From NCBI GenBank assembly GCA_000421325.1, contig ATWQ01000016.1, positions 1 to 33,174 of the forward strand: a DNA stretch of 33,174 bases, given 5' to 3'. The stretch's first letter is position 1, and each line of letters opens with the position of its first letter. This document shows, one piece after another, positions 748 to 12,165 of this stretch. The notes beneath the pieces are model-generated. The model searched no databases, was not told the origin of the DNA, and saw only the letters and a list, made by a program, of their open reading frames with translations. The position numbers and the translations under genes are program-made. Source of the stretch: an alpha proteobacterium SCGC AAA536-K22. GTDB lineage: Bacteria; Pseudomonadota; Alphaproteobacteria; Puniceispirillales; Marisalimonadaceae.

Positions 748-900
748 TTATTCTGAACAGCAATTAACTTTATCACTACAACATCCGTCACTACAACAAC
801 TGCTACTACACTCTCCAGTATTGCAACCATCACTACAACAACCATCTGCACAACAAGTTTGTTTACAACAACTCTCTACAATTTTCGTCTGTTCAGTCAT
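748..900 (-). CDS. Cysteine-rich (14 of 50 residues) microprotein, possibly metal binding
   Basis: This encodes 50 residues, starting MTEQTKIVESCC. I chose the ATG at 900 because GGGGGT sits about 5 nt upstream; the longer frame adds an N-terminal extension without a ribosome site. Fourteen of 50 residues are cysteine, mostly as CC pairs separated by Ser/Asp/Gly (repeated CCSDGC-like units). There is no signal peptide, and basic residues are few. High Cys content with CC pairs and no aromatic residues is typical of metallothionein-like metal-binding peptides in the cytoplasm. No known bacterial metallothionein family (for example SmtA) is recognisable, so the metal role is inference. A Cys-rich RiPP precursor is an alternative, but no modification enzyme is adjacent. 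Confidence 0.65.
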   Translation of the reverse strand: MTEQTKIVESCCKQTCCADGCCSDGCNTGECSSSCCSDGCCSDKVNCCSE

Positions 901-1008
901 GATAGACCCCCATTTTTTTATAACAATATAATTATAATCTATAAATGCAGTAAGTATACCTTTAAAAACATACACCCCTTAAAACTGACAAGAATTAATA
1001 TCTTTGCA

Positions 1009-1585: not shown

Positions 1586-2050
1586 ATGCTTAAAACTGAT
1601 AAACCATGCCTGAACTATAAACTTCAATTGAATCCAGAGATTTTTTTTATGCCTAACCCTTCAGAAGATGTACTTTATAAACACCATAATGCAATCAATA
1701 CCCAAGATGAAACAGAATATCTTGATAGTGTAAAGTTTCCATTTACATATCAGAACTACAATGGTGTTTCGATTACAATCAGAGATGTGGAGGATTATAA
1801 AGTTAATTATAAAATGCCATGGGATATAATTAAGGATACAGAAGAAAACTGGTCACATACAGACATGGATAATATTGAAGAAGTAGCACGTTCTAATTCT
1901 TCTGTAGTTTATAAATTATTAATGAGAAGGATAAATCAATTAGGTAATACAGACCTTGTTATTCAAGTAATATGGATTGCTGTCTTTACAAAAGGTAAAT
2001 GGGGTATCCAATTCAGACATAACTTAGGAACACCCTCCCCTCAGAACTAA
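1586..2050 (+). CDS. NTF2-like (SnoaL/DUF4440-type) protein
   Basis: This encodes 154 residues. From about residue 25 the sequence follows the NTF2-like pattern: an amphipathic helix (SEDVLYKHHNAINTQD), a segment with paired aromatics (FPFTYQNYNG), a central helical region, and C-terminal beta strands ending in GKWGIQFRHNLG. That last motif closely matches the WGIQxR end of small SnoaL-like proteins. The fold forms a cone with a pocket, used for small-molecule binding or catalysis, but no catalytic Asp/His pair can be assigned. The start codon follows TATAAT closely and has no ribosome site. The specific role is unknown. Confidence 0.7.
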   Translation: MLKTDKPCLNYKLQLNPEIFFMPNPSEDVLYKHHNAINTQDETEYLDSVKFPFTYQNYNGVSITIRDVEDYKVNYKMPWDIIKDTEENWSHTDMDNIEEVARSNSSVVYKLLMRRINQLGNTDLVIQVIWIAVFTKGKWGIQFRHNLGTPSPQN

Positions 2051-2055
2051 CAATC

Positions 2056-2143
2056 AAAACCTAATCTATAAACCATGACAGTATCCAAAGGAAAGCGTCA
2101 CTTATTATTTAACTTATATAATGAATTTGATTAGACTGTGAGT
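2056..2143 (+). promoter_or_regulatory. Dispersed 88-nt promoter element, copy A
   Basis: A full-length copy in front of the Nmad3-like gene. It begins AAAACCTAATCTATAAACC. It contains TTTAAC at 2108-2113 (-35 position), an 18-nt spacer, TAGACT at 2132-2137 (-10 position) and 6 nt before ATG. The geometry is the same as in copies B, D and G. With the -10 this close, the transcript would begin at or within a few bases of the ATG, so the mRNA would be leaderless. Confidence 0.75.
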
Positions 2144-2956
2144 ATGACCAAAATTATTTTTAGTAGAAAAGGTTTTGATAGTTCTGCTGGTGGTATTCCA
2201 AGTAGTAAAAGAGGAGAACATTTAATAAGTTTTCCAATACCCTATAAAAAGAATACCTTAACAACGTATAATCACGTTGGTCTAGGTAAAGACATAAAAG
2301 AGTTATCGAACAACAAAATCAAACCTACTGATACTTGCCATTTTGATCCTAATCTTGACTATGGAGAATTTGGGCAAGTCGGCGCTGCCCAAACTCATTT
2401 AAAAAATAATAACGTAGGAGTAGGAGATCTTTTTTTATTTTGGGGGTGGTTTAGAGAAACGTTAACAGTTAATAAACAAACTGTTTTCTCAAAGGAAGAT
2501 CCTGGACACTATAGATTATTTGGTTGGATGCAAATCGGACAAATTATTCATCTTGGTAAAGATCCAAGTTGGTACTTAAAAGAAGAACCTCATAGCATGT
2601 CACATCCTCATACAATAGGTTTATGGGGAGATAATAACACTTTATACTTAGCAAGTGATAAACTAGATACTTTTGGTTTAAAGGACTATTATGGGTTTGG
2701 AAAATTCAAGGCATCTCATAGAACAAATTTAAGTATTAATCCATCAGTTAAAAAATCCAAATGGATTTGTCCGAAGTGGTTAAATCCAAATCATGGCGGG
2801 TGTGGGATGACTTATCATAAAGATATTAAAAGATGGGATGATAACACTGTTGATATTGTTGGAAGGGGACAAGAATTTATTGCCGAACCAAAAAATTTAA
2901 ACGATTGTAAGGTATGGTTAAAAGATATATTCAAAGACGCTAATACAATAAACTAA
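2144..2956 (+). CDS. Nmad3-like putative nucleotide-modification protein
   Basis: This encodes 270 residues. The N-terminus, KIIFSRKGFDSSAGGIPS, followed by a SFPIP segment, is characteristic of the Nmad3 family, proposed by comparative genomics to act in nucleotide base modification. Further conserved features are DYGEFGQVGAAQTHL, GDLFLFWGWF and, in the C-terminal part, GLWGDNNTLYLASDKL and KWICPKWLNP. I start it at ATG 2144, because copy A of the repeat element puts a -10 hexamer 6 nt upstream; the GTG at 2138 would lie in the promoter spacing. It is followed after 13 nt by a zinc-finger-like microprotein. There is no phage gene or methyltransferase next to it, so this is a stand-alone copy. 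The reaction is not established. Confidence 0.7.
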   Translation: MTKIIFSRKGFDSSAGGIPSSKRGEHLISFPIPYKKNTLTTYNHVGLGKDIKELSNNKIKPTDTCHFDPNLDYGEFGQVGAAQTHLKNNNVGVGDLFLFWGWFRETLTVNKQTVFSKEDPGHYRLFGWMQIGQIIHLGKDPSWYLKEEPHSMSHPHTIGLWGDNNTLYLASDKLDTFGLKDYYGFGKFKASHRTNLSINPSVKKSKWICPKWLNPNHGGCGMTYHKDIKRWDDNTVDIVGRGQEFIAEPKNLNDCKVWLKDIFKDANTIN

Positions 2957-2969
2957 AAGATAATTTAAA

Positions 2970-3179
2970 ATGAAATTTCATTATTGTTCAAGATGTAATC
3001 TTCCTTCAAAAAAACTTTATAATTGTAAATATGAAGAACACGAGAAAGATTGGTTTTTGCTTTGCACAGAATGTGTTCTTCAATGCAGAAAAATTTTTAA
3101 AAAAGCATTTAAATCTAAATCTGGGAAAATAACATCCGTTGGGTTAGTTAAGACAAGAAAAGAGAGAAGTTTATTATAA
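2970..3179 (+). CDS. Five-cysteine zinc-finger-like microprotein, copy 1
   Basis: This encodes 69 residues. The cysteines follow C-x2-C-x9-C-x12-C-x2-C (C6, C9, C19, C32, C35, plus an extra C39), with KDWFLLC around the second CxxC and a basic C-terminus ending TRKERSLL. Two CxxC knuckles spaced this way suggest a zinc ribbon. Three more intact copies with the same spacing lie at 3217, 3391 and 15672, and a decayed copy lies at 13571. The gene is 13 nt after the Nmad3-like gene and is probably co-transcribed with it and with the next two copies. A basic, zinc-binding small protein could bind nucleic acid; that is inference. Confidence 0.75.
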   Translation: MKFHYCSRCNLPSKKLYNCKYEEHEKDWFLLCTECVLQCRKIFKKAFKSKSGKITSVGLVKTRKERSLL

Positions 3180-3216
3180 ATTTAAATTTTAATAGTATAA
3201 AAAAGAAAATATAATA

Positions 3217-3384
3217 ATGAATAAATGTTACGTATGTAAATTTCCACACGAAGAGTTTTATAAGTGCAAAATTGACGAAGATAATATTTTTTATGATATT
3301 TGTTTTAATTGTGCCAAATTTGAATCATTAAATAACAAAAACTTTGAATGGTTAGATGGGAATAAAAAAACTAATACTTTGTAA
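3217..3384 (+). CDS. Five-cysteine zinc-finger-like microprotein, copy 2
   Basis: This encodes 55 residues starting MNKCYVCKFPHEEFYKC. The cysteine spacing C-x2-C-x9-C-x11-C-x2-C (C4, C7, C17, C29, C32) matches its neighbours, as do the aromatic residue two places before the middle Cys and the acidic linker. Unlike the other copies it lacks the DW and LC residues of the DWxxLCxxC motif (it has FYDICFNC), and its tail is less basic. It is the middle member of a tandem trio, 37 nt after copy 1 and 6 nt before copy 3. Agreement in spacing with the other copies is the main evidence that this short frame is real. Confidence 0.7.
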   Translation: MNKCYVCKFPHEEFYKCKIDEDNIFYDICFNCAKFESLNNKNFEWLDGNKKTNTL

Positions 3385-3390
3385 TATTAT

Positions 3391-3573
3391 ATGACGAGGG
3401 TAAGAACAAAAGAGTGCTATAAATGCCATGAACACAAAGATGTTCTGTATCGTTGTAGATATGATGAAATCAACGATTGGTTATTCCTATGTGGAGAATG
3501 TTTAAAAGGGGTAAAAAACTTCTTTAAAGACACATATCGATATGGTGGTACTTGGAAAAGTAAAAAGAAATAA
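3391..3573 (+). CDS. Five-cysteine zinc-finger-like microprotein, copy 3
   Basis: This encodes 60 residues. The pattern C-x2-C-x9-C-x11-C-x2-C (C9, C12, C22, C34, C37) is complete, with LYRCRYDE at the middle Cys and DWLFLCGEC at the second knuckle. The C-terminus YRYGGTWKSKKK is strongly basic. The combination of two CxxC knuckles and a C-terminal YGGTWK tail looks like small zinc-binding proteins I associate with marine bacterial genomes, but I cannot attach a family name. It starts 6 nt after copy 2, so translational coupling is likely. It is the last gene before repeat element copy B. Confidence 0.75.
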   Translation: MTRVRTKECYKCHEHKDVLYRCRYDEINDWLFLCGECLKGVKNFFKDTYRYGGTWKSKKK

Positions 3574-3595
3574 CTACCCCTTAAACCTAACAAAT

Positions 3596-3683
3596 AAAAC
3601 CTAATATTTAAACGACGATAGTTTCCAGAAGGTAATATCAATTATTCTTTACCAAACTTGTCATTTTTGATTAAAATATTCTA
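3596..3683 (+). promoter_or_regulatory. Dispersed 88-nt promoter element, copy B
   Basis: A full-length copy with AAAACCTAATATTTAAAC at its start, 88 nt before the MORN gene. TTTACC (3648-3653), an 18-nt spacer, TAAAAT (3672-3677) and 6 nt lead to ATG 3684. The internal block AATATCAATTATTCTTTACC is nearly identical to the matching block of copy G. The similarity to copy G continues through the signal-peptide codons of the gene. Confidence 0.75.
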
Positions 3684-4265
3684 ATGATTGCTTTTTATAA
3701 AAAATTCTTATTGTTTTTAGGAGTTATAATCCTTTTTTGTTTATCTTCGTCTATTGTTTGGAGTGAAACAATGGGTGATTTAATTTGGAGAGACGGAATC
3801 TACTATAAAAAATTCTCTGATATTCCTTTCAGTGGAAAAGTTAATGGAGATATAAAAGGTCTTTTTAAGAATGGTAAAAAAGAAGGAACGTGGGTTCGTT
3901 ATTATAAAAATGGTCAATTATTTTCTGTATCAAATTATAAAATGGGGAGAAAAGATGGTGCCTGGATTACCTATAGTAATAAGGGAATGTTTATAGAAAA
4001 AGGGTTGTATAAAAACGATCTCGAAGAAGGTCCTTGGATACGTTTTTTTGAAAATGGTGAGATTAATTACAAAGGTGATTTTATTAATGGTAAAAAAGTA
4101 GGTCCTTGGATTGCATATCATTTTAACGGTCAACTTGAGTATAAGGGTAGTTTCAAGAATGGAAAGAAAGATGGTATTTGGGAATATTATTCACCTAACG
4201 GTTCCCAATATGAAGAACATTCTGGCATATATAAAAATGGTAAAAAAGTTAGTAGTAAAACCTAA
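3684..4265 (+). CDS. Secreted MORN-repeat protein
   Basis: This encodes 193 residues. Residues 1-27 form a signal peptide (basic YKK, hydrophobic core, VWS-E cleavage region). From about residue 55 there are five to six MORN-type repeats, each with NGKKxGxW followed by a YxNGQ-like turn, spaced about 23 residues, as in YwqK-type toxin-antitoxin-associated or envelope MORN proteins. MORN repeats form a beta-hairpin array that mediates binding; no enzymatic domain is attached. The first ~87 nt are clearly related to those of the gene at 10599, although the mature proteins differ. The last codons run into repeat copy C, whose CCTAA supplies the stop codon. It is probably exported to the periplasm. 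Confidence 0.8.
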   Translation: MIAFYKKFLLFLGVIILFCLSSSIVWSETMGDLIWRDGIYYKKFSDIPFSGKVNGDIKGLFKNGKKEGTWVRYYKNGQLFSVSNYKMGRKDGAWITYSNKGMFIEKGLYKNDLEEGPWIRFFENGEINYKGDFINGKKVGPWIAYHFNGQLEYKGSFKNGKKDGIWEYYSPNGSQYEEHSGIYKNGKKVSSKT

Positions 4266-4342
4266 TCTATAAACCACCATAGTATCCAGATAGAAATACC
4301 AATTATTATCCTCTAATTTTTTTGATGATTTATGATTAGTTT
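4257..4342 (+). repeat. Dispersed promoter element, copy C (orphan)
   Basis: This copy begins AAAACCTAATCTATAAACC inside the end of the MORN gene and includes AGTATCCAGATAGAAATACC and a GATTAG sequence at the -10 position. The -35 region is altered (TTATCC, with extra bases). There is no ATG 6 nt after the -10; the sequence there reads ACT. The next gene is 120 nt further on. It looks like a copy that lost its target start codon, or a remnant left by rearrangement. Confidence 0.65.
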
Positions 4343-4466
4343 AATTCAACTATCTCTTGTATTTAAGTTTTTATGCTGTACATAAATATTTCAATCAATT
4401 TTTAATCTCAAAATTATTTCTTAAAATAAGTCATAACAATACTTTTTTATAATACGGAAAAACTAC

Positions 4467-4673
4467 ATGAAACCTGGCGATAAACTATATTTGATTTCAA
4501 ATTTAGATATTTATGCTGAAATCTTAGATGAAAAAGTTATGAATAATATACCTCATTTTAATATCAATGTTCATAGAGGTACATCTAAAACTAAAAGTTG
4601 TTTAAGCAAGATAGCATTAGAGACTTATTACCAAACTTCTCAAATTCCCAAAAAATCATTTTTTAATTGTTAA
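4467..4673 (+). CDS. Small hypothetical protein
   Basis: This encodes 68 residues, starting MKPGDKLYLISNLDIYAEI, which reads like a short beta-rich domain. The C-terminal half contains NVHRGTSKTKSC and ends KKSFFNC. There is no signal peptide or membrane span. TATAAT at 4451-4456 lies 10 nt upstream of the ATG, giving a very short leader and no Shine-Dalgarno sequence. It is not recognised as any family. The start KPGDKLYLI resembles segments of small SH3-like or translation-factor-type folds, but this is too weak to use. Confidence 0.5.
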   Translation: MKPGDKLYLISNLDIYAEILDEKVMNNIPHFNINVHRGTSKTKSCLSKIALETYYQTSQIPKKSFFNC

Positions 4674-4696
4674 GTGAAAAATAGTTTTAACTGATT

Positions 4697-4784
4697 AAAA
4701 CTTAATCTATAAAACACAATAGTATACGTATACAAGTATGATTTACTATTTACCCAGCATATCTAATTTGATTAGACTACGCCT
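4697..4784 (+). promoter_or_regulatory. Dispersed 88-nt promoter element, copy D
   Basis: A full-length copy: AAAACTTAATCTATAAAACA at 4697, TTTACC at 4749-4754, an 18-nt spacer, TAGACT at 4773-4778 and 6 nt before ATG 4785. The internal block is the most diverged of the full-length copies and includes GTATACGTATAC, a perfect palindrome. The geometry to the start codon is unchanged. Confidence 0.75.
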
Positions 4785-5672
4785 ATGAAAAATAAGGATT
4801 GGATATTAGTGATTTTACTTGGTCTCTTTTGGGGATCAACTTTCTTTTTTGTTGAGGTGCTTTTAAAGTATCTAAGTCCATTTATGATTGTTTATTTAAG
4901 AGTTTCAATAGCGTCCATTTTTTTAATTTTCTTTATAATAATACGGGGTACTAAATTTGAACTTTCATTAAAAAATCTTTTTAATCTTTTTGTAATGAGT
5001 TTATTAAATAACGTTTTTCCTTTTCTTCTTATAACTTTTGGTCAACAAACAACTACAGGTGGTTTGGCGTCAATTTTAAATGCGAACACATCTTTTATTG
5101 GGATACTTTTAGCATCATTTTTTTTACCTTTGGAGCGACTAAATTTTATTAGATTAATAGGAGTTTTAATTGGAGTGTTTGGAGTAATCATCGCTATTGG
5201 TTATCAAAATATCATTCAATTAAAAGATGATGATTTGGGTAAATATTTAATATTAATTGCAACTATATCATATGGTTTTGCAGGAGTGTGGGGAAAATTA
5301 AGATTACAGAATCTTACCCCTGTTTTTGCCGCCACAGGTATGTTAACAATGAGTACTATTATCCTAAGTCCATATGCCTTTACAGTGCATTTGGAAGAAA
5401 TATATTCTTTAAACTTATTTATTATTAAATATGCACTTGCTTTTGCAATAATTTGTTCAGTATTTGCGTATTTTTTATACTTTAAAATACTAGAAAGTGC
5501 CGGAGCAGGAAATCTATTGATTTGTACTATAATTATCCCTCCTTCGTCTATTTTCTTGAATGCTTTTATATTAGAACAAACAGTTTCTTTTAATGAATAT
5601 TTGGGATTAATAATAATTATATTTGGTCTAATTATATTAGATGGTCGTTTAATAAAAAGAAAAATAAGTTAA
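4785..5672 (+). CDS. EamA/DMT-family inner-membrane transporter
   Basis: This encodes 295 residues with about ten hydrophobic segments, the usual size and topology of drug/metabolite transporters built from two EamA repeats. The first repeat starts WILVILLGLFWGSTFFFVEV, with the typical W/G-rich first helix and a following PxxxxxxR segment (SPFMIVYLRV). The end of each half shows the ExxxxxxxxGxxxIxxG pattern (LERLNFIRLIGVLIGVFGV and VSFNEYLGLIIIIFGLIIL). The family exports or imports amino acids, nucleotides or similar small metabolites; the substrate cannot be read from sequence. It is driven by repeat element copy D and probably translated from a leaderless message. Confidence 0.9.
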   Translation: MKNKDWILVILLGLFWGSTFFFVEVLLKYLSPFMIVYLRVSIASIFLIFFIIIRGTKFELSLKNLFNLFVMSLLNNVFPFLLITFGQQTTTGGLASILNANTSFIGILLASFFLPLERLNFIRLIGVLIGVFGVIIAIGYQNIIQLKDDDLGKYLILIATISYGFAGVWGKLRLQNLTPVFAATGMLTMSTIILSPYAFTVHLEEIYSLNLFIIKYALAFAIICSVFAYFLYFKILESAGAGNLLICTIIIPPSSIFLNAFILEQTVSFNEYLGLIIIIFGLIILDGRLIKRKIS

Positions 5673-5958
5673 CAATAATACAGTTACTTATTATCTTTCA
5701 TAACTATTATGAAACTGACGATGTGTTTATAATCATTGAAGATAAGATGATTAAGGAGATTGAGACTTAAACAATAGAAAGTAAGGAGAGTAATACAAAA
5801 ACCTTTTGCAGATCAAGATCGCAAAGTAAGGTTAATATAATAAGGAGGATTTTTAATTCTGCTTATCCAAAAGGATATATAACCACTCTGATCATCAACA
5901 GATTTTAAAATATATTTTAGTAATTATAACTCTAATTTTATTTAACGGAATTTAATAA

Positions 5959-6459
5959 ATGGATTTTAAGGTAAAGTTTGAAGATAATGATTTAATAATA
6001 AAACAATTAAAACAAGAAGAATTTAATGATTTATATAATGTTGCAAAAGATCCAAATATATGGAAACAACATCCTGAAAATGATCGATGGAAAAAAGAAA
6101 AATTTGCTATTTTTTTCAAAAATGGAATTGATAATGAATTTGGAATTTATAAAATAATTAATAAATCTAATAAAGAAATTATTGGTTCAAGTAGATTTTA
6201 CAACCTTGACCCAAAGGATAAGGCAATAAGGATTGGATTTACTTTTATTACGACTAAATATTGGGGAACAACTACAAACTTTAAAATCAAAAAATTGATG
6301 ATAGATTACGCTTTAAAATTCTTAGACAAAATATATTTCGACATAGGTGAAAATAACATTCGTTCAAGAAAAGCAGTTGAAAAACTAGGTGCAACTTTTT
6401 TTAGTGATGATAACAAAGGGATGGTAGTTTATAAGTTAAATAAAATAGATTTTATTTAA
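5959..6459 (+). CDS. GNAT-family N-acetyltransferase (RimJ/RimL-like)
   Basis: This encodes 166 residues with the layout of Acetyltransf_3 proteins. Residues 11-18 form the first strand (LIIKQLKQ) and EEFNDLYNVAKDPNIWKQHP is the family's first helix region. KEIIGSSRFYNLDPKDKAIRIGFTFI gives the central strands. KYWGTTTNFKIKKLMIDYAL marks the acetyl-CoA-binding region, although the usual Q/RxxGxG/A is replaced by GTTTN. NNIRSRKAVEKLGATF is the conserved C-terminal motif. The likely reaction is acetyl transfer from acetyl-CoA to a primary amine, with unknown substrate. The weak pyrophosphate loop is unusual for an active enzyme. Confidence 0.85.
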   Translation: MDFKVKFEDNDLIIKQLKQEEFNDLYNVAKDPNIWKQHPENDRWKKEKFAIFFKNGIDNEFGIYKIINKSNKEIIGSSRFYNLDPKDKAIRIGFTFITTKYWGTTTNFKIKKLMIDYALKFLDKIYFDIGENNIRSRKAVEKLGATFFSDDNKGMVVYKLNKIDFI

Positions 6460-6518
6460 ATAAATTATCAAAATTTTAAATTAATAATTGTGAAATAAAA
6501 ATCTAAATTATTTGGTTA

Positions 6519-6782
6519 TTATTTTAATGGATTAATTGCATATGGTAATATCTCTTCAGATAAACCTTCATTCAATTTAATAAATTCTGGATCAGACATC
6601 ATTTTTCCCATTCCTTCCATATCAACATCAAAAATGGTAACAAGTGCAGTTTTATCATTTGCCTTAGCAAATAATGTTTTACTTTCATCACATATTTTAG
6701 ATCTGACATCTGTATGGTTAATAAAAACTTTTTCCCAAACTTCATAAGAACTTTTTAATTTTATAACTAAATGAACATCCAT
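6519..6782 (-). CDS. Small hypothetical protein, possibly DUF3764-like
   Basis: This encodes 87 residues from ATG 6782; a GTG four codons upstream is possible but lies within an AT-rich promoter-like stretch. The pattern is a strand (DVHLVIKLKSS), a helix with YEVWEKVF, a strand with KTALVTIFDVD, then a helix MEGMGKMMSDPEFIKLNEG. This matches small proteins of the DUF3764 type found in marine cyanobacteria and other plankton: about 90 residues with a dimeric alpha/beta-barrel look. No catalytic residue is evident. The function is unknown and the family assignment is tentative. Confidence 0.6.
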   Translation of the reverse strand: MDVHLVIKLKSSYEVWEKVFINHTDVRSKICDESKTLFAKANDKTALVTIFDVDMEGMGKMMSDPEFIKLNEGLSEEILPYAINPLK

Positions 6783-6959
6783 TATTTTAATCACTTTCTC
6801 ATTTATATTTTTTATAATTATAAATTATTAAAACAGTGAAAAACATTATTCAATTTTTTTTAGAATAGCGCTGGAAAAGGTAAAAAAGTGTTAGAAAATA
6901 GTGCAATTCTTGAAGAAATTTGTGAAGGTAACAGAATTTATAAATTATTAAATAAAATC

Positions 6960-7406
6960 TTATTTTGTCATTTTCATTTTTTTAAAGTTTTCTTCTTCAA
7001 GCAACTTTTTTTCTTGAGAGTTATTACTACTTTTCTTATCAAATTGTTCAGAGAATCTATTTAAGAGAGGCAGAAAAGTTCTAAAACAATATTTAACAAA
7101 AGGGTCAACTTTATCCAAAATATCTTTTAAGTATTTTTCCGGTATGATAAACACCTCACCTTTAGTTAATGCAATTGCAGTGAACATTCTAACTTTATTA
7201 TCAAAAAAAACATTAAATATACCTACAACTTCTCCAGAACCAACTACATCAACTTGAGATTTATGTTTTAATAATTCTATTTCACCAAATTTTATTATAT
7301 AGGCGTCTCCCAAAGTATCTCCTTCTCTATAGAGCACATCGTTCTTTTCCAGCGTTCTTGAAGAAAACATTTTTGATAAATCAGTATCTGCGCCAAAAAA
7401 ACTCAT
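6960..7406 (-). CDS. Cyclic-nucleotide-binding-domain protein without a DNA-binding domain
   Basis: This encodes 148 residues. Residues 15-115 form a cNMP-binding beta-roll as in Crp/Fnr: LEKNDVLYREGDTLGDAYIIKFGEIELL is typical of the first half, then VVGSGEVVGIFNVFFDNKVRMFTAIALTKGEVFIIP. The phosphate-binding cassette (GExxxxxxxxxxxxRxxxA) is only partly kept: GEVVGIFNVFFDNKVRMFTA retains G, E and an R. After a short helix the protein ends in a lysine-rich, coiled-coil-like tail (SQEKKLLEEENFKKMKM), with no helix-turn-helix. GGAGGG sits about 6 nt before the ATG. It is likely a cytoplasmic sensor or adaptor; the ligand is uncertain. Confidence 0.8.
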   Translation of the reverse strand: MSFFGADTDLSKMFSSRTLEKNDVLYREGDTLGDAYIIKFGEIELLKHKSQVDVVGSGEVVGIFNVFFDNKVRMFTAIALTKGEVFIIPEKYLKDILDKVDPFVKYCFRTFLPLLNRFSEQFDKKSSNNSQEKKLLEEENFKKMKMTK

Positions 7407-7603
7407 ATTTACCCTCCAAAGGACAATAGATTTTTAAGTTACGACTTATATCTACTTCATTAGAACTCCTTTTGGAGAAAAAATAAAAAAGCAAGTTATT
7501 ATATACATATTATCAAAAATTTGACGAGATATATTTAATTAACAATTTAACTATTGAAAAATACTTACATAAAAAAAATTGCAATGTACTTTAACTGACA
7601 TCC

Positions 7604-7650
7604 AAAACTTAATCTATAAACCACGATAGTACCCAGAAAAAATATCAATT
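7604..7650 (+). repeat. Dispersed promoter element, copy E (5' half only)
   Basis: The sequence AAAACTTAATCTATAAACC, then ACGATAGTACCCAG and AATATCAATT, matches the 5' half of copies A-D. At 7651 the match stops before the TTTACC/-10 module. What follows is a different promoter with TTGACA. This marks the junction of a rearrangement or a replaced 3' half. Confidence 0.65.
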
Positions 7651-7665
7651 AAACGCCTTCAGTTC

Positions 7666-7704
7666 TTGACACAGATTTGACACAGTAAGGCAGTAGGATA
7701 TATA
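7666..7704 (+). promoter_or_regulatory. Sigma70-like promoter with a duplicated -35
   Basis: TTGACACAG occurs twice (7666-7674 and 7677-7685), 11 nt apart. The second TTGACA is followed after 16 nt by TATATA (7699-7704). The expected transcription start is near 7711, about 35 nt before the tRNA-like sequence. It is the closest match to consensus -35/-10 sequences that I see in the window. The 11-nt repeat period could also form a regulator site. Confidence 0.55.
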
Positions 7705-7746
7705 CTTATTCAATAATAAATCTGTGAGAAAATAAGGGTTTAAAGG

Positions 7747-7798
7747 GGTTAACTGGATAGAGCACTAGACTACGAATCTAGTGGTCAAGACTTTGAAT
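7747..7798 (+). pseudogene. tRNA-Arg(ACG)-like remnant
   Basis: The D-loop and anticodon arm are recognisable: AACTGGATAGAGC (7751-7763), a 5-bp anticodon stem CTAGA/TCTAG (7765-7769 and 7777-7781) and loop CTACGAA with anticodon ACG at 7772-7774. A T-loop-like TTTGAAT lies at 7792-7798. Directly after it, the 3' half of the T stem (expected GTCTT) and the acceptor 3' strand are absent. The 5' acceptor and D-stem 5' strand are also poor (GGTT for GCTC). It is probably a decayed or truncated tRNA gene, perhaps a former integration site. Confidence 0.6.
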
Positions 7799-7836
7799 AT
7801 TATGAAATACGACATATGTTCAATTGTAATTGATGG

Positions 7837-8187
7837 TTATTCATGTTCTCCACCTTTATCATTGGGATCTAATTCTATTCTTTTTCCATCAACATAAATT
7901 GCACGACTTCGACTAGGTGTGTAATAGCCTCCAAAATATTTTGGTTTTCTTTTAGCAATTTCAAAAGTTGCTACAGTTATTGCAATTGCACTTAATAAAA
8001 GAATATGTGCAATTGTTGTTATTCCAAATATCCACATACTACTAAAAGACATTGAGAAAATAATGCACCACATCCACGCCAAAACCTGCATAATCATATG
8101 TCTTGTATTTGTGTCAGGTATATTTTTGAGAGGATTTTTGTCATGATTCATGACGATATTCCAATTATCATAAATTATTTTTTGCAC
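7837..8187 (-). CDS. Two-span membrane protein of unknown function
   Basis: This encodes 116 residues from GTG 8187, chosen because GGAGAT lies about 5 nt upstream; an ATG twelve codons in (about 8151) is possible. The N-terminal part contains NPLKNIPDTNTRHMIMQVLAWMW. Two hydrophobic segments follow (about residues 33-52 and 56-76, the second with LLLSAIAITVATFE). The soluble tail has YFGGYYTPSRSRAIYVDGKRIELDPNDKGGEHE. The tail after the second span is polar and probably cytoplasmic. The strongly patterned sequence and ribosome site make it a real gene. I recognise no named family. Confidence 0.7.
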   Translation of the reverse strand: MQKIIYDNWNIVMNHDKNPLKNIPDTNTRHMIMQVLAWMWCIIFSMSFSSMWIFGITTIAHILLLSAIAITVATFEIAKRKPKYFGGYYTPSRSRAIYVDGKRIELDPNDKGGEHE

Positions 8188-8330
8188 ATGATCTCCATTC
8201 TTAGACTATATTCATAAGCTATTTTAATATTAAATAAAAGTTATTAACGTGTTAAAATATTTTTTATGTAAATTAAATGAAATAAAAATCATTATTTTTA
8301 TTTTAATAATTTTTTCGTTAAGATTTGAAT

Positions 8331-9179
8331 ATGAATAAATTCTTTATAATATTTTTTTTACTTCTTGGAATAAGTAGCTGTATTACCACTCATGAAAAGA
8401 GTGTCTCTAATAAAACGAAGACAAATTTAGATCTATCTCAAAATAAAATAAAAGATGACGTTATTCAATATAAATTCATTCAATGGAAATGTTACAAGTC
8501 TAGTTGGTTAAATAAATATAAGGAACTTATTTATGTTGTTGGATATTTTCCAGAATTTCAAAAATTTGATAAAAATAATAGAATTGGAATGTCTTTTTTA
8601 AATAATACAAAATCAAAAAAACTAGCAATATATTCTCGTCAAGGTGTACAACATTATTGGGATTGGGGAGGAGAAAATTTCAATAATTATCGGATAATAA
8701 TTCATCCTTCTGGTAATGGATGGCTTTACAATTTTGAAAATAGGAAATCAAATGAACAAAAAAGGCCCAATCAAACTTACGATTGTAAAAGCTCTAAAAC
8801 CACTTCTATACCCATAAATAATATAAGAAATGTTATAAATGAATTAAATGACGTTCCAAATTTTGAAGAAACGGATTTAAAAAATAATTTACAAATTCAT
8901 ATGCAAAAATGTTTTAAATTAAATTTTCCAACTACGAAAGTGTTTAAAAATAATCCTAAGGTTACTATCCAAATTTTTATTAATGAAAATGGTATAATTA
9001 AAAAAACAAATATTTTAAATAGAAAAAAATATGAAAGTGATTTTGAATATAAAACTCTGGCAGATATTGCAAGTAAAGCAGTAATTAATTGTATGCATTT
9101 ACCAATTCCAAAGAATAAGACTAAATTATTTAAAAATTTTATAATGAATTTTGACTCTAACTTTATTTATAAAAAGTAA
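8331..9179 (+). CDS. Lipoprotein with a TonB/TolA C-terminal-like domain
   Basis: This encodes 282 residues from ATG 8331 (a TTG two codons upstream is in frame). Residues 1-18 are a lipoprotein signal peptide with lipobox ISSC, so Cys18 would be lipidated. Residues 30-140 hold a Trp-rich region (YWDWGGENFNNYR). The C-terminal ~110 residues have the TolA/TonB-C pattern: KVTIQIFINENGIIKKTNIL, a helical DFEYKTLADIASKAVINC, then LPIPKNKTKLFKNFIMNFD. In TolA this domain contacts periplasmic or outer-membrane partners. Here it is on a lipoprotein and no tolQR genes are nearby, so it is an orphan. TAAGAT lies 7 nt before the ATG; there is no Shine-Dalgarno sequence. Confidence 0.7.
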   Translation: MNKFFIIFFLLLGISSCITTHEKSVSNKTKTNLDLSQNKIKDDVIQYKFIQWKCYKSSWLNKYKELIYVVGYFPEFQKFDKNNRIGMSFLNNTKSKKLAIYSRQGVQHYWDWGGENFNNYRIIIHPSGNGWLYNFENRKSNEQKRPNQTYDCKSSKTTSIPINNIRNVINELNDVPNFEETDLKNNLQIHMQKCFKLNFPTTKVFKNNPKVTIQIFINENGIIKKTNILNRKKYESDFEYKTLADIASKAVINCMHLPIPKNKTKLFKNFIMNFDSNFIYKK

Positions 9180-9308
9180 TTAAGACTTATTATTTAACAA
9201 ACCTAAAAATAATTGTCTTTATTTATAACTTTTAAAATAATTTAAGTTTGTTTTTCAATATATTATTTTTTTATAAATAGTTTGGATAAAAAGTGTAAAT
9301 AAATCATC

Positions 9309-9344
9309 TTTACCTACAATACAGATTTTGATTAGACTGTAATT
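9309..9344 (+). promoter_or_regulatory. Dispersed promoter element, copy F (3' module)
   Basis: TTTACC (9309-9314), an 18-nt spacer, TAGACT (9333-9338) and 6 nt lead to ATG 9345, the same spacing as copies A, B, D and G. TTTTGATTAGACTGTAATTATG is close to the corresponding part of copies A and D. The 5' block is poorly conserved; a ttataaatag segment near 9271 may be its remnant. Confidence 0.7.
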
Positions 9345-9977
9345 ATGAAATTAATAATTGCTACTCCCAGTCCTTATGCAAGAAAAGTAAGAGTAATATT
9401 GCGTGAAAAAGATATAAATTTTGAAGAAATTATTGATATTCCATGGAATTCAGACACCCTAACTGTTGGGATCAATCCTTTAGGAAAAATACCAATACTC
9501 CTAAGTGACAAACATGAACCTTTGTTTGATAGTAAAGTTATTTCTCAATACCTAGATCACTATAAACCCAAACCTCTTTTCTATCCTAAAAAATCAGAAG
9601 AAAATATCTCTGCAAGGTTAATTGAAAATGTTGCAGATGGAATATGTGACTCAATCGTTCTAATATTTCTTGAAAATTCAAGAAAAGAAAGTCTTAGAAG
9701 TGATGCTTGGATTAAAAGACAAGAGAAAAAAATATTTGAAGGAGTAAAATATTTTTCAACTAATCTTAAAGAAAAGAGATATTTTGTAGGCGACCATTTT
9801 AATATTGCAGATGTAAGCGGATTTACCTGTCTAGAATATCTTGATCTAAGATTTCCTAAATTTAAATGGAGGGATCAATATAAAAATTTAGTAGTATATT
9901 GGAATATACATAAAGATAGACAATCGTTTAAAGAAACTAAACCAGTTGCACAGATTATTGAACCTCTTGATGATTAA
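9345..9977 (+). CDS. Glutathione S-transferase family protein
   Basis: This encodes 210 residues. The N-terminal thioredoxin-like domain (1-80) starts KLIIATPSPYARKVRVILREK, where SPYARKVR is the glutathione-site motif of bacterial GSTs. NPLGKIPIL contains the cis-proline and FDSKVISQYLDH the conserved D/E-S gamma-glutamyl-binding pair. The C-terminal all-helical domain (90-200) has FVGDHFNIADVSGFTCLEYLDLRFP, the N-capping box with the family's conserved Asp. Expected activity is glutathione conjugation or reduction of small electrophiles in the cytoplasm. It is expressed from repeat element copy F as a probable leaderless mRNA. Confidence 0.92.
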   Translation: MKLIIATPSPYARKVRVILREKDINFEEIIDIPWNSDTLTVGINPLGKIPILLSDKHEPLFDSKVISQYLDHYKPKPLFYPKKSEENISARLIENVADGICDSIVLIFLENSRKESLRSDAWIKRQEKKIFEGVKYFSTNLKEKRYFVGDHFNIADVSGFTCLEYLDLRFPKFKWRDQYKNLVVYWNIHKDRQSFKETKPVAQIIEPLDD

Positions 9978-10118
9978 ATAAGTTTTGGAGATTAATAATC
10001 ACAGTATTAATTATAATTATTACATGATTATTTTATAAAAAATGAAATTAGATAATATTTAGGTTTTCATGAAATATTAAAAAATTCTATAATCATATTT
10101 ATGAGAAAGTTTTGATGA

Positions 10119-10469
10119 ATGTCATATTTTATTTTCAAAGTTTTAATTACTGCATTCTTAATTGTTATTATTAGTGAAATTGCAAAAACGAATGATCGAA
10201 TGGGAGGTCTAGTTGCAGCTCTTCCAATAACGACTATAATGATATTATTTTGGCTATATTATGAGAAAACACCTACAGAAAAAATTTCTAATCATATGTC
10301 CTTTACATTAATATATGTTCTACCAACACTTCCAATGTTTTTAACTTTTCCATATTTAATAAACAAGTTTGGATTTTATATATCAATGATTATAAGTATT
10401 GTTATGACAACTATTTTTATTTTTATTGTAGATCTTGTTTCAAAAAAATTTGGATATAAATTGATTTGA
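10119..10469 (+). CDS. DUF3147 family membrane protein
   Basis: This encodes 116 residues with four hydrophobic segments. The first carries ITAFLIVIISEIAKTNDRMGGLVAALP, typical of DUF3147, in which a conserved acidic residue in helix 1 and the GGLxAALP segment are diagnostic. TTIMILFWLYYE and the later segments match in length and order. Members are small inner-membrane proteins of unknown function, often near transporters. No neighbouring gene suggests a partner. The start at 10119 fits the family length; there is no clear Shine-Dalgarno sequence. Confidence 0.85.
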   Translation: MSYFIFKVLITAFLIVIISEIAKTNDRMGGLVAALPITTIMILFWLYYEKTPTEKISNHMSFTLIYVLPTLPMFLTFPYLINKFGFYISMIISIVMTTIFIFIVDLVSKKFGYKLI

Positions 10470-10510
10470 TAGATTAGCCTTATATTTACTATATTTTAAA
10501 ATTAACAAAT

Positions 10511-10598
10511 TAAACCTTATTTATAAACTATAAAAAAATATAGAAAGAAATATCAATTACTTTTTACCTATCTTAATTCTTATGGTTAAAAATTAGGA
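10511..10598 (+). promoter_or_regulatory. Dispersed 88-nt promoter element, copy G
   Basis: A full-length copy: TAAACCTTATTTATAAAC at 10511, AGAAAGAAATATCAATTAC, TTTACC at 10563-10568, an 18-nt spacer, TAAAAA at 10587-10592 and 6 nt before ATG 10599. It is 88 nt long, as in copies A, B and D. Similarity to copy B continues into the coding sequence. Confidence 0.75.
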
Positions 10599-11195
10599 AT
10601 GATTCATTTATATAAAAAATTCTTATTACTTTTAGGAGTTATATTTTACCTTTGTTTCACAGCTTCTAACGTTTGGAGCAAATCTGGGGTGGATTTAGTA
10701 GAGATCAAGTTACTTAATGATTTAGACGACAAGAGAGGTTTTTGTATTGATATTAAAGGATATAAATTTAGGGCAAAAATAAAAAGAGGAATTCAAGCAC
10801 ATACCTGTTACTCTTATCAAGGAGAGATTGCTGTTGATCAAGGTTTAGACACCAAGAAATTAAAACAAAAACAACTATTTTTTCCTAATTTTAATGTTTG
10901 TGTACACCCAACTTTATATAAAAATCATCTAATTTTAAATCTCATGAAATGTACCAAAACTGAAATATTTATATTTGGTGAAGACAACACTATTCGTTTA
11001 AAAAATAATACTAACTTATGTCTAACAGTTGGGAAAGAACCTTCAAGAAAAGGTGGTGGTGGATCCCCCATACATTTGATGAGAAATGTATCAATGCAAA
11101 AATGTAATATCCAAAGTTTTATTTATCAGACATGGGGTATAAGACATTTTATTAAAGGTAAAATTGTTGAAAAAAAAATATTTAGTTTCAGATAA
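10599..11195 (+). CDS. Secreted beta-trefoil (ricin-B-like) protein
   Basis: This encodes 198 residues. Residues 1-28 are a signal peptide nearly the same as that of the MORN protein (YKKFLLLLGVI and VWS are shared). The mature part has the ricin-B lectin pattern. RGFCIDIKG, then NFNVCVHP, and NTNLCLTVG are the repeated hydrophobic-C-L strands, and SFIYQTWGI is a Q-x-W motif that closes a trefoil lobe. Paired cysteines suggest disulfides in the periplasm or outside the cell. Such domains bind carbohydrates or cap secreted hydrolases; here it stands alone. The carbohydrate role is inference. It is expressed from element copy G. Confidence 0.7.
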   Translation: MIHLYKKFLLLLGVIFYLCFTASNVWSKSGVDLVEIKLLNDLDDKRGFCIDIKGYKFRAKIKRGIQAHTCYSYQGEIAVDQGLDTKKLKQKQLFFPNFNVCVHPTLYKNHLILNLMKCTKTEIFIFGEDNTIRLKNNTNLCLTVGKEPSRKGGGGSPIHLMRNVSMQKCNIQSFIYQTWGIRHFIKGKIVEKKIFSFR

Positions 11196-11237
11196 ATAAA
11201 TATCTATAAAAAATTAATTTCAAATATTTTTTTCTTA

Positions 11238-11660
11238 TTAATTACATTTTTCGTTTTGTTCAGTCATTTCTTTTTTTCTTATGGGCATTGTATCAATAAT
11301 ATTGTGAATTTCTTTTAATAATGAAATGTCTGTAGAATGGGATTTATCTTGACCATCGTAGCCAATTAACCAGATACCATATTTGTTCATGTATCTATCT
11401 GGAATAATATATTTATTAATTTCATCTCCAACAATTCTAATGTACTTCAAATTTCTAGCTTCATTTTTACAATTATTTCTTTTAAAAAAATCGTCAGTTT
11501 CATTAATAAAATGAACATATTTAGCCTTTGTAATAAAAAGAACTATTCTTTTTTTCCACGACAATGAATTTATATAATCTTGTAAATTTATCTTTGTACT
11601 TGAATTACCCATAGTTGGAAACATAAATAATGCTAATAAAAAACATAATACTTTTTTCAT
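11238..11660 (-). CDS. Secreted DUF4174 domain protein
   Basis: This encodes 140 residues. Residues 1-20 form a signal peptide (KKVLCFLLALFMFPTMGNSS). The remainder follows DUF4174: LSWKKRIVLFITKAKY as the first strand, then KYIRIVGDEINK and YGIWLIGYDGQDKSHS. It ends with LLKEIHNIIDTMPIRKKEM, where the DxMPxRxxEM ending is characteristic of the family. DUF4174 has a thioredoxin-like layout without a CxxC, and its function is unknown; the protein is probably periplasmic. TAAAAT lies 6 nt before the ATG (11667-11672 on the + strand), so this leftward gene also appears leaderless. Confidence 0.88.
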   Translation of the reverse strand: MKKVLCFLLALFMFPTMGNSSTKINLQDYINSLSWKKRIVLFITKAKYVHFINETDDFFKRNNCKNEARNLKYIRIVGDEINKYIIPDRYMNKYGIWLIGYDGQDKSHSTDISLLKEIHNIIDTMPIRKKEMTEQNEKCN

Positions 11661-11714
11661 TTCTTAATTTTACCTTGAATATTAAAAGCACCTAACCAGT
11701 TAAAACTGATAATT

Positions 11715-11802
11715 AAAACATATCTAAATATATTACAAAAATATCTATTGAGAAATATCAATAATTCTTTTTTTTACAATTTTTTTGGTTAAAGTACAAA
11801 TC
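11715..11802 (+). promoter_or_regulatory. Dispersed promoter element, copy H (diverged)
   Basis: AAAACATATCTAAATAT at 11715 lies exactly 88 nt before the cupin ATG, and GAGAAATATCAATAATTC matches the internal block. The -35 is disrupted by a T-run (TTTACA at 11773-11778, only 11 nt from TAAAGT at 11790-11795), and 7 nt separate the -10 from the ATG. Total length is kept although the inner spacing is not. Confidence 0.6.
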
Positions 11803-12165
11803 ATGACAAAACCCATAAATTTAAATTCGAAATTCAACATTTTTACTGACCATTGGTCTCCAAAAGTTATTGCTGAAATGAACGATTATCAATTTAAACT
11901 TGTAAAAATAAAAGGTGAATTTATAAAACACCAACATTCTGATACAGACGAAGTATTTATAGTGATTGAAGGAAAAATGAATATAGAATTTGAATCTTAC
12001 ACAATACAAGTCAAAAGTGGTGAAATGATTGTAGTTCCAAAAGGAGTTATGCATAAACCGTTTGCTAAAAAAGAATGCAAAGTAATGTTAGTAGAACCAA
12101 GAGGTGTATTAAATACCGGTGATACTAAAGGGGATATGACTGCTCCAAATAATCAATGGATTTAA
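11803..12165 (+). CDS. Single-domain cupin protein
   Basis: This encodes 120 residues from ATG 11803; the longer frame from 11785 would start inside the promoter element. The two cupin motifs are clear. FIKHQHSDTDEVFIVIEG has the HxH plus Glu metal ligands at about residues 42-48, and GEMIVVPKGVMHKPFA has the second motif's His. The metal site therefore looks complete. MEF at the centre is replaced by MNIEFESY. Small cupins of this type are metal-dependent isomerases, dioxygenases or sensors; the substrate is unknown. The protein ends GDTKGDMTAPNNQWI. It is followed by about 220 nt that contain the candidate small RNA. Confidence 0.9.
   Translation: MTKPINLNSKFNIFTDHWSPKVIAEMNDYQFKLVKIKGEFIKHQHSDTDEVFIVIEGKMNIEFESYTIQVKSGEMIVVPKGVMHKPFAKKECKVMLVEPRGVLNTGDTKGDMTAPNNQWI

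What the first reader, a model, noticed from the sequence alone, without database searches (positions are those of the whole stretch)
2056..11802. Dispersed 88-nt promoter element placed at exactly the same distance from six start codons' worth of genes
Copies at 2056, 3596, 4697, 10511 and (diverged) 11715 begin with AAAAC or TAAAC exactly 88 nt before an ATG. A further copy (9309) keeps only the 3' module, and two copies (4257, 7604) are orphaned or truncated. Five copies share TTTACC/TTTAAC - 18 nt - TARANW - 6 nt - ATG without any change of spacing. Products are unrelated (Nmad3-like, MORN, EamA, GST, beta-trefoil, cupin). All lie on the + strand within 10 kb. Sequence homology of the 5' block rules out chance. 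It looks like a promoter module that has been copied in front of unrelated genes, making them one regulon.
Basis: seen in the sequence. Interest (0 to 1): 0.85.

Follow-up and report, generated by a model that had tools for sequence, protein, structure and literature searches.

The report
Shared promoter cassette in tRNA islands
A roughly 90-base stretch of DNA sits before many unrelated genes in movable gene islands of ocean SAR116 bacteria, and looks like a standard control unit that travels and recombines with the genes it switches on.

Summary
The element has two separable parts. Block A is a ~40-nt core (AAAACCTAATCTATAAACCACGATAGTATCCAGAGAGAAA) with flanks. Block B1 is TTTACC-18-TARACT-6-ATG, a leaderless-type promoter. 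In 40 genomes of the window's genus (SAR116 by titles of matching records), A occurs in 25 (72 hits, E<=0.01); 31 of 45 B1 hits (E<1e-3) stand behind an A. In fetched regions, A-to-TTTACC is 52 nt in 32 of 41 joined copies, and A-to-ATG is 88 nt in 23 of 33. Eleven ORF clusters lie behind A+B1. 60 of 79 copies are in regions with a tRNA-Arg/Met gene, an integrase (fragments counted) or a tRNA-Arg 3' remnant. The 7604 copy adjoins such an island end. Recombination junctions inside A were seen between relatives. In three proteins the copied block runs into signal-peptide-like codons. Against a special role for A: gene ends without A keep the same downstream about equally often (54% versus 51% of pairs), and half of the A copies have no B1. 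I read it as a mobile intergenic regulatory cassette, working like the PeSLs of T4-like phages. Promoter activity and a shared regulon are unproven.

The parts
2045..2106 (+). A block, copy 1, overlapping the stop of ORF 1586-2050
   Evidence: E 7.6e-14
2107..2138 (+). B1 promoter-like module, then ATG at 2144 (Nmad3-domain protein, PF18754)
   Evidence: E 5.2e-5
3584..3647 (+). A block, copy 2, right after ORF 3391-3573
   Evidence: E 9.2e-14
3646..3688 (+). B1, then ATG 3684 (MORN_2 protein with signal-peptide-like start)
   Evidence: E 0.0031
3581..3763 (+). promoter plus first ~27 codons, shared with 10496-10678 (72% identity over 183 nt, blastn E 4.5e-25)
4255..4307 (+). A block without B1, overlapping the stop of the MORN gene (4265)
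   Evidence: E 1.0e-13
4691..4747 (+). A block, copy 4
   Evidence: E 1.6e-5
4748..4778 (+). B1, then ATG 4785 (EamA transporter, PF00892)
   Evidence: E 2.0e-6
7593..7652 (+). A block joined to an island right end
   Evidence: E 1.1e-15
7656..7746 (+). B2 module: island-end repeats (TTTGACACAG type); holds the best sigma-70-like match of the stretch (TTGACA-18-TATACT at 7677)
7745..7801 (+). partial tRNA-Arg 3' remnant (decayed attR-like end)
   Evidence: E 2.4e-9
9307..9339 (+). B1 without A, then ATG 9345 (GST)
   Evidence: E 3.1e-7
10499..10561 (+). A block, diverged
   Evidence: E 5.2e-4
10563..10603 (+). B1 (weak), ATG 10599 (protein with beta-trefoil-like domain, Ricin_B_lectin below cut-off)
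   Evidence: E 0.031
11703..11767 (+). A block, most diverged; ATG 11803 (cupin) 88 nt after its AAAAC
   Evidence: E 2.2e-3

Best explanation
A+B1 is a mobile intergenic regulatory cassette of SAR116 tRNA-integrated islands. B1 is a housekeeping-sigma promoter whose start point falls on or next to the ATG, giving leaderless mRNA (inferred from spacing and constraint). A is a C-rich, G-poor element often placed at the stop codon of the preceding gene, on the coding strand. I infer that it ends or insulates upstream transcription, possibly through Rho. Because the same cassette stands at many gene borders, homologous recombination between copies deletes or swaps the genes between them (junctions in A shown; the mechanism is inferred). 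Occasionally it grafts promoter plus signal-peptide-like codons onto a different protein. Captured genes are thereby expressed from a standard unit.
For: Near-constant A-B1-ATG spacing across relatives and 11 downstream ORF clusters. 36 of 83 A copies begin within -45..+40 nt of a same-strand stop (crude ORF calls); random points gave a mean of 7.6 and a maximum of 16 in 200 trials. A has 14.5 C and 4.7 G per 60 nt against 8.4 and 8.7 in random windows. A (p-distance 0.18) and B1 (0.17) vary less than 4-fold sites of the gene behind them (0.31) and the 60 nt upstream (0.36), in 66 non-independent pairs of 12 loci. Junctions within A with loss or gain of the DNA between two A copies: L150 versus L067 (826 bp, flanks 99.7% and 99.3% identical), L145 versus L075 (1.2 kb, 95.6% and 85%), L133 versus L135 (2.6 kb, 92% and 89%). 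Promoter plus signal-peptide-like block shared by three different proteins. Islands: tRNA-Arg or tRNA-Met, integrase, tRNA remnant.
Against: Gene ends without A in the same islands keep the same downstream in 314 of 579 pairs (54%), A ends in 43 of 84 (51%). Averaged over similarity groups, A ends switch somewhat more (8 of 10 groups against 25 of 51), too few to settle it. So A is not shown to be a preferred hub. 42 of 83 A copies have no B1. No hairpin terminator or conserved RNA fold in A. A generic sigma-70 scan of window 1900-12000 found no excess (62 sites, shuffles 73.9) and among the listed sites caught only one of the B1 modules, that at 3648. The own genome has no match to the 327-aa island integrase at E <= 1e-60. 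No control was run for how often random regions would pass the island test. The hybrids can also be read as gene conversion, and the direction (loss or gain) is not polarised. No expression data.
Confidence: 0.55

Rival explanations
1. A plain regulon: A is the binding site of a shared regulator (for example the small ribbon-helix-helix-like protein encoded in the islands) and B1 the promoter it controls. Spread by ordinary copying; recombination is incidental.
For: A varies less than synonymous sites. A contains a short dyad (ATCTAT-N8-ATAGTAT, read by eye). A small RHH-like gene (label from its sequence; no Pfam hit) occurs in 10 of 40 genus genomes, all 10 among the 25 with A; in 9 of the 10 it lies on the same strand 0.1-2.5 kb upstream of an A.
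Against: 15 of the 25 A-bearing genus genomes gave no RHH match (assemblies are incomplete). Half of the A copies have no B1. A often sits at upstream stop codons. The integrase co-occurs with A too, so co-occurrence does not single out a regulator.
Confidence: 0.2
2. A is a dedicated site-specific recombination site (integron- or dif-like), each gene plus A being a cassette moved by a tyrosine recombinase.
For: A follows stop codons (36 of 83) in one orientation (15 of 17 contigs with at least 2 hits; same strand as the tRNA in all 20 regions with tRNA-Arg ACG or TCG). In L150 and L145 the switch lies at the same right-hand edge of A (GAGAAATAT).
Against: No conserved fold as attC would need. 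The switch in L133 is elsewhere or unresolved. The island integrases appear to have their own tRNA sites and arm repeats, and more than one integrase cluster occurs beside A.
Confidence: 0.13
3. Neutral relics: the islands are mosaics built by repeated segmental duplication and A+B1 is passively carried with genes.
For: Neighbour switching is about as frequent without A. Some gene families recur with their own A or B1.
Against: Fixed spacing before unrelated genes and constraint on A and B1.
Confidence: 0.1
4. Phage-derived late promoter: A carries a TATAAA core like the T4-like late promoter TATAAAT and lets islands answer a helper phage.
For: A 28-of-30 match lies in Methylophilales phage Melnitz before an ORF beside a tRNA-Arg. 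The Melnitz paper used TATAAAT as late-promoter query (passage of PMC9004378).
Against: blastn gives E 1e-3 but the profile match is not significant at database size (E about 2). Two pattern scans of viral contigs found none.
Confidence: 0.02

Closest known systems
PeSLs, promoter(early) stem-loop cassettes of T4-like phages (Arbiol 2010; Comeau 2014; titles and one passage seen in PMC4503421; the papers themselves not held; further content recalled)
   Same: Repeated intergenic promoter cassette between unrelated small genes in a variable region; recombination between copies shuffles modules
   Different: Bacterial tRNA-integrated islands, not phage; no stem-loop terminator in the main form; leaderless-type start; extends into signal-peptide-like codons in some copies
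Intergenic repeats of halovirus HF2 that carry promoters (PMC8707807, abstract and outline read)
   Same: Dispersed intergenic repeats (58 and 29 bp) with promoter activity
   Different: Archaeal virus; promoter activity was measured there, not here
Putative mobile promoters in prokaryotes (recalled; one search looked for the phrases and gave a listing, none of it opened)
   Same: Homologous promoter regions before unrelated genes
   Different: Here found mainly in one kind of island, with a separate post-stop module
Tycheposons and similar tRNA-bounded flexible islands of marine bacteria (passages of PMC10872708 read; original paper recalled)
   Same: tRNA at one end, tyrosine recombinase, variable cargo
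   Different: No repeated promoter cassette was mentioned in the passages read; hallmark replication or packaging genes not tested here

Membership tests
PeSL | promoter at fixed place before genes | tested here: inconclusive
   position and spacing met; promoter activity not tested and the sigma-70 scan is weak
PeSL | stem-loop terminator in the cassette | tested here: not met
   no conserved fold, no terminator-like site at the cassettes in the window; only a minority variant has TCCCA-loop-TGGGA plus T-rich tail
PeSL | shuffles modules by recombination between copies | tested here: inconclusive
   junctions in A seen but switching is not clearly more frequent than at other gene ends
PeSL | T4-like phage genome | tested here: not met
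   bacterial genomes
Integron cassette array | attC-type folded site | tested here: not met
   RNAalifold on the A copies weak, about -3.3 kcal
Integron cassette array | IntI integrase | not tested
   one island integrase is a Phage_integrase protein, the other gave only a sub-threshold int-SAM match; IntI-specific features not searched
tRNA-integrated genomic island | complete tRNA plus integrase at one end, tRNA 3' remnant at the other | tested here: met
   met in several relatives (L062, L063, L064, L066, L067, L071, L075, L143, L150 have all three); in the window only the remnant end is present (no complete tRNA)
Tycheposon | replication or packaging hallmark genes | not tested
   -
Transposon or MITE | terminal inverted repeats and both orientations | tested here: inconclusive
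   orientation uniform in 15 of 17 contigs; terminal repeats not formally searched

The most novel reading that the evidence does not exclude
SAR116 islands carry a gene-cassette system in which each gene ends in a recombination site (A) unlike any known att site and begins with a standard leaderless promoter, B1 (sometimes with a signal peptide), so that genes and even secretion signals are exchanged as ready-to-express units between islands at several tRNA genes.
Probability: 0.13. Interest if true: 0.85.

Novelty: new variant of a known kind. Interest (0 to 1): 0.52.

Why it matters
Streamlined ocean bacteria are thought to gain niche genes through variable islands, but how a captured gene gets expressed is unclear. 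A promoter cassette shared by islands at several tRNA genes, with recombination junctions inside it, is a concrete and testable answer. The promoter plus signal-peptide-like graft suggests the same route can make new secreted proteins.

Tried and rejected
Rfam: no family at the gathering threshold in the window. In L009 at E up to 10 the only match above its gathering score is away from A; three sub-threshold matches with E 2.3-9.7 touch A copies and I take them as chance. RNA structure of A: rejected. Plasmids: no match. IMG/VR viral contigs: two patterns, no match. Phages: four Melnitz isolates only; not significant with the profile, kept as a lead. Hypothesis that A is a special recombination hub: a control over 264 gene ends without A gave about the same switching, so the claim was lowered. 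The hybrid L073 looked like a clean A-A deletion but is a more complex mosaic. L078 and L149 versus L064 have flanks only 75-89% identical, so I count three clean events of the six candidates. RHH co-occurrence cannot separate regulator from passenger, since the integrase co-occurs too: 15 of 40 genus genomes at 70% identity or more (one of them a fragment), all 15 with A. Literature: a first guess at a Prochlorococcus repeat element found no paper. Searches for SAR116 with islands, integrase, repeats or promoter showed no such element in the titles and abstract starts listed; the eight papers listed do not hold the word SAR116. Passages of PMC8547437 mention only a hypervariable region for the cell envelope.

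Rows dropped before counts: one search used 12 of 14 loci (two truncated genes). One search used 42 of 47 upstream and 41 of 45 downstream classes. One search found a start within 45 nt for 44 of 59 B1 hits (E up to 0.05). In one search, 8 of 41 joined copies had no ATG in the 14 nt looked at. One search used 83 A hits (E up to 0.01), those 79 with E below 1e-3. Window ORF 1586-2050 carries a weak A hit at 1593-1640 (E 0.006) that I do not count as a part.
Full report
Observation. Reading the window confirms AAAAC or TAAAC exactly 88 nt before ATG at 2056, 3596, 4697, 10511 and 11715, and a 3' module alone before the ATG at 9345. The repeat finder recovers the 5' block as six copies and the 3' block as four. 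A profile of the 5' block (model R1, sequence only) finds 15 hits (E up to 0.01) in the own genome, all on three of its 92 contigs (C16 = window, C36, C41).

Organism. An exact-pattern scan of named genomes gave 23 stretches, 17 of them titled SAR116; two more are named alpha proteobacterium SCGC AAA536-G10, which NCBI leaves as unclassified Alphaproteobacteria. That the window's genus is SAR116 is inferred from these titles. Two records are other uncultured Alphaproteobacteria (L050, L054), 91% identical to each other over 198 nt around A.

Anatomy. Block A: AAACTGACAACC (often missing), then AAAACCTAATCTATAAACCACGATAGTATCCAGAGAGAAA, then TATCAATTACTC. Sequences behind A differ: B1, an island-end module B2, a TCCCAAGTTGGGA variant, or unrelated DNA. 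B1: TTTACC, 18 nt, TARACT, 6 nt, ATG. In the genus search, 31 of 45 B1 hits with E < 1e-3 follow an A (30 with no gap, one after 28 nt) and 14 stand alone. Of nine lone B1 loci checked, four start a GST gene, one an Nmad3 gene, two other ORFs, and two had no ORF called. In fetched regions, 41 of 83 A copies have B1. AAAAC to TTTACC is 52 nt in 32 of 41, and AAAAC to ATG is 88 nt in 23 of the 33 with an ATG in place. Of 59 B1 hits, 44 have a start within 45 nt; 27 are exactly 6 nt after the -10, and 5 more have an ATG at that same place with an in-frame start two codons before it. Eleven ORF clusters stand behind A+B1 and 18 behind any B1.

Distribution. A is found in 25 of 40 genus genomes, 30 of 136 in the order, 5 of 20 genera (E up to 0.001), and, besides the own genome, in one of 384 further genomes sampled from the class (E up to 1e-4). 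No plasmid and no viral contig matched. Phage Melnitz has a 28-of-30 match (blastn E 1e-3) that the profile does not support at database size.

Islands. B2 carries two TTTGACACAG-type repeats, mostly followed by the 3' part of a tRNA-Arg. At the other end of the islands stands a complete tRNA-Arg (ACG or TCG), then in many a 327-aa Phage_integrase protein. Others sit at tRNA-Met with another integrase-like protein that has only a sub-threshold int-SAM match. 33 of 43 regions, holding 60 of 79 A copies, have a tRNA-Arg/Met gene, an integrase or fragment of one, or a tRNA-Arg 3' fragment; several of the rest are short contigs; no random-region control was run. In all 20 regions with tRNA-Arg ACG or TCG, A is on the strand of the tRNA. 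The window copy at 7604 is such an island end with a partial tRNA-Arg. ARAGORN finds no complete tRNA in the window, and the own genome gave no match to the 327-aa integrase at E up to 1e-60, so the window's island is decayed or incompletely assembled.

Place of A. 36 of 83 copies start within -45..+40 nt of a same-strand stop codon (random mean 7.6, maximum 16 in 200 trials); 52 have a same-strand ORF end nearest within about 400 nt, 27 an opposite-strand one, 4 none. A is rich in C and poor in G. There is no conserved fold. I infer a post-gene terminator or insulator, perhaps Rho-dependent; this is not shown.

Constraint. In front of one recurrent gene (GFA-like below the Pfam cut-off, 12 of 14 loci used), A and B1 diverge by 0.18 and 0.17, against 0.31 at 4-fold sites and 0.36 in the 60 nt upstream; A is below the 4-fold value in 57 of 66 pairs, which are not independent.

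Recombination. 83 A copies fall in 47 upstream and 45 downstream context classes. 8 upstream classes meet more than one downstream class and 6 the reverse. A search for copies whose upstream side matches one A and whose downstream side matches a later A of the same contig gave six candidate hybrids. Three are clean: L150/L067 (826 bp; here the left partner keeps only the right half of A), L145/L075 (1.2 kb), L133/L135 (2.6 kb). But gene ends without A switch about as often (54% same downstream versus 51% at A; by similarity group 25 of 51 versus 8 of 10 show a switch). Recombination in A is therefore supported, while its being a special hub is not shown.

Signal-peptide-like graft. The block from A through B1 and about 27 codons is shared by the MORN gene (3684) and the beta-trefoil-like gene (10599) at 72% identity over 183 nt (E 4.5e-25), and by the MORN gene with L066:7574 over 152 nt (E 1e-20). 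No nucleotide similarity was found beyond it. The signal-peptide reading comes from the amino-acid sequence, not from a predictor.

Verdict. A mobile intergenic regulatory cassette found mainly in SAR116 tRNA-integrated islands. It works like a PeSL but fails its stem-loop and phage criteria, so it is not filed as one. Promoter, terminator and regulon functions remain inferences.

Noticed in passing
L009 241-342 (G000 contig C36): Methylobacterium-1 sRNA (RF01712, 86 bits, E 1e-14) on an A-rich contig of the own genome.
   Followed up: no
window 2970-3179 and 3391-3573; 50 ORFs in the fetched regions: A family of small Cys-rich, zinc-ribbon-like proteins is the largest ORF cluster in these regions and in several cases stands directly before an A block. 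No Pfam family above cut-off for the one member scanned.
   Followed up: partly
window 3581-3763 and 10496-10678; L066 7574: Promoter plus signal-peptide-like codons grafted onto different mature proteins.
   Followed up: yes
L082 3994-4008 and 4440-4454 (Melnitz phage MZ577096): A 15-nt direct repeat GGTAGCTAAAACTGA, 446 nt apart, brackets an ORF and a tRNA-Arg; the first copy runs into an A-like stretch.
   Followed up: partly
L062 11270-12394; L009 4469-5365: LAGLIDADG/intein-like ORF and a T5orf172/MUG113-domain ORF on A-bearing regions.
   Followed up: no
L050 about 7364-7421; L054 7579-7635: A plus about 120 nt of further conserved sequence in two other Alphaproteobacteria, L054 near a serine-recombinase-like ORF (my reading of its sequence).
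   Followed up: partly
window 748-975, minus strand: Small protein very rich in CC pairs (CCSDGC repeats), metallothionein-like by eye.
   Followed up: no
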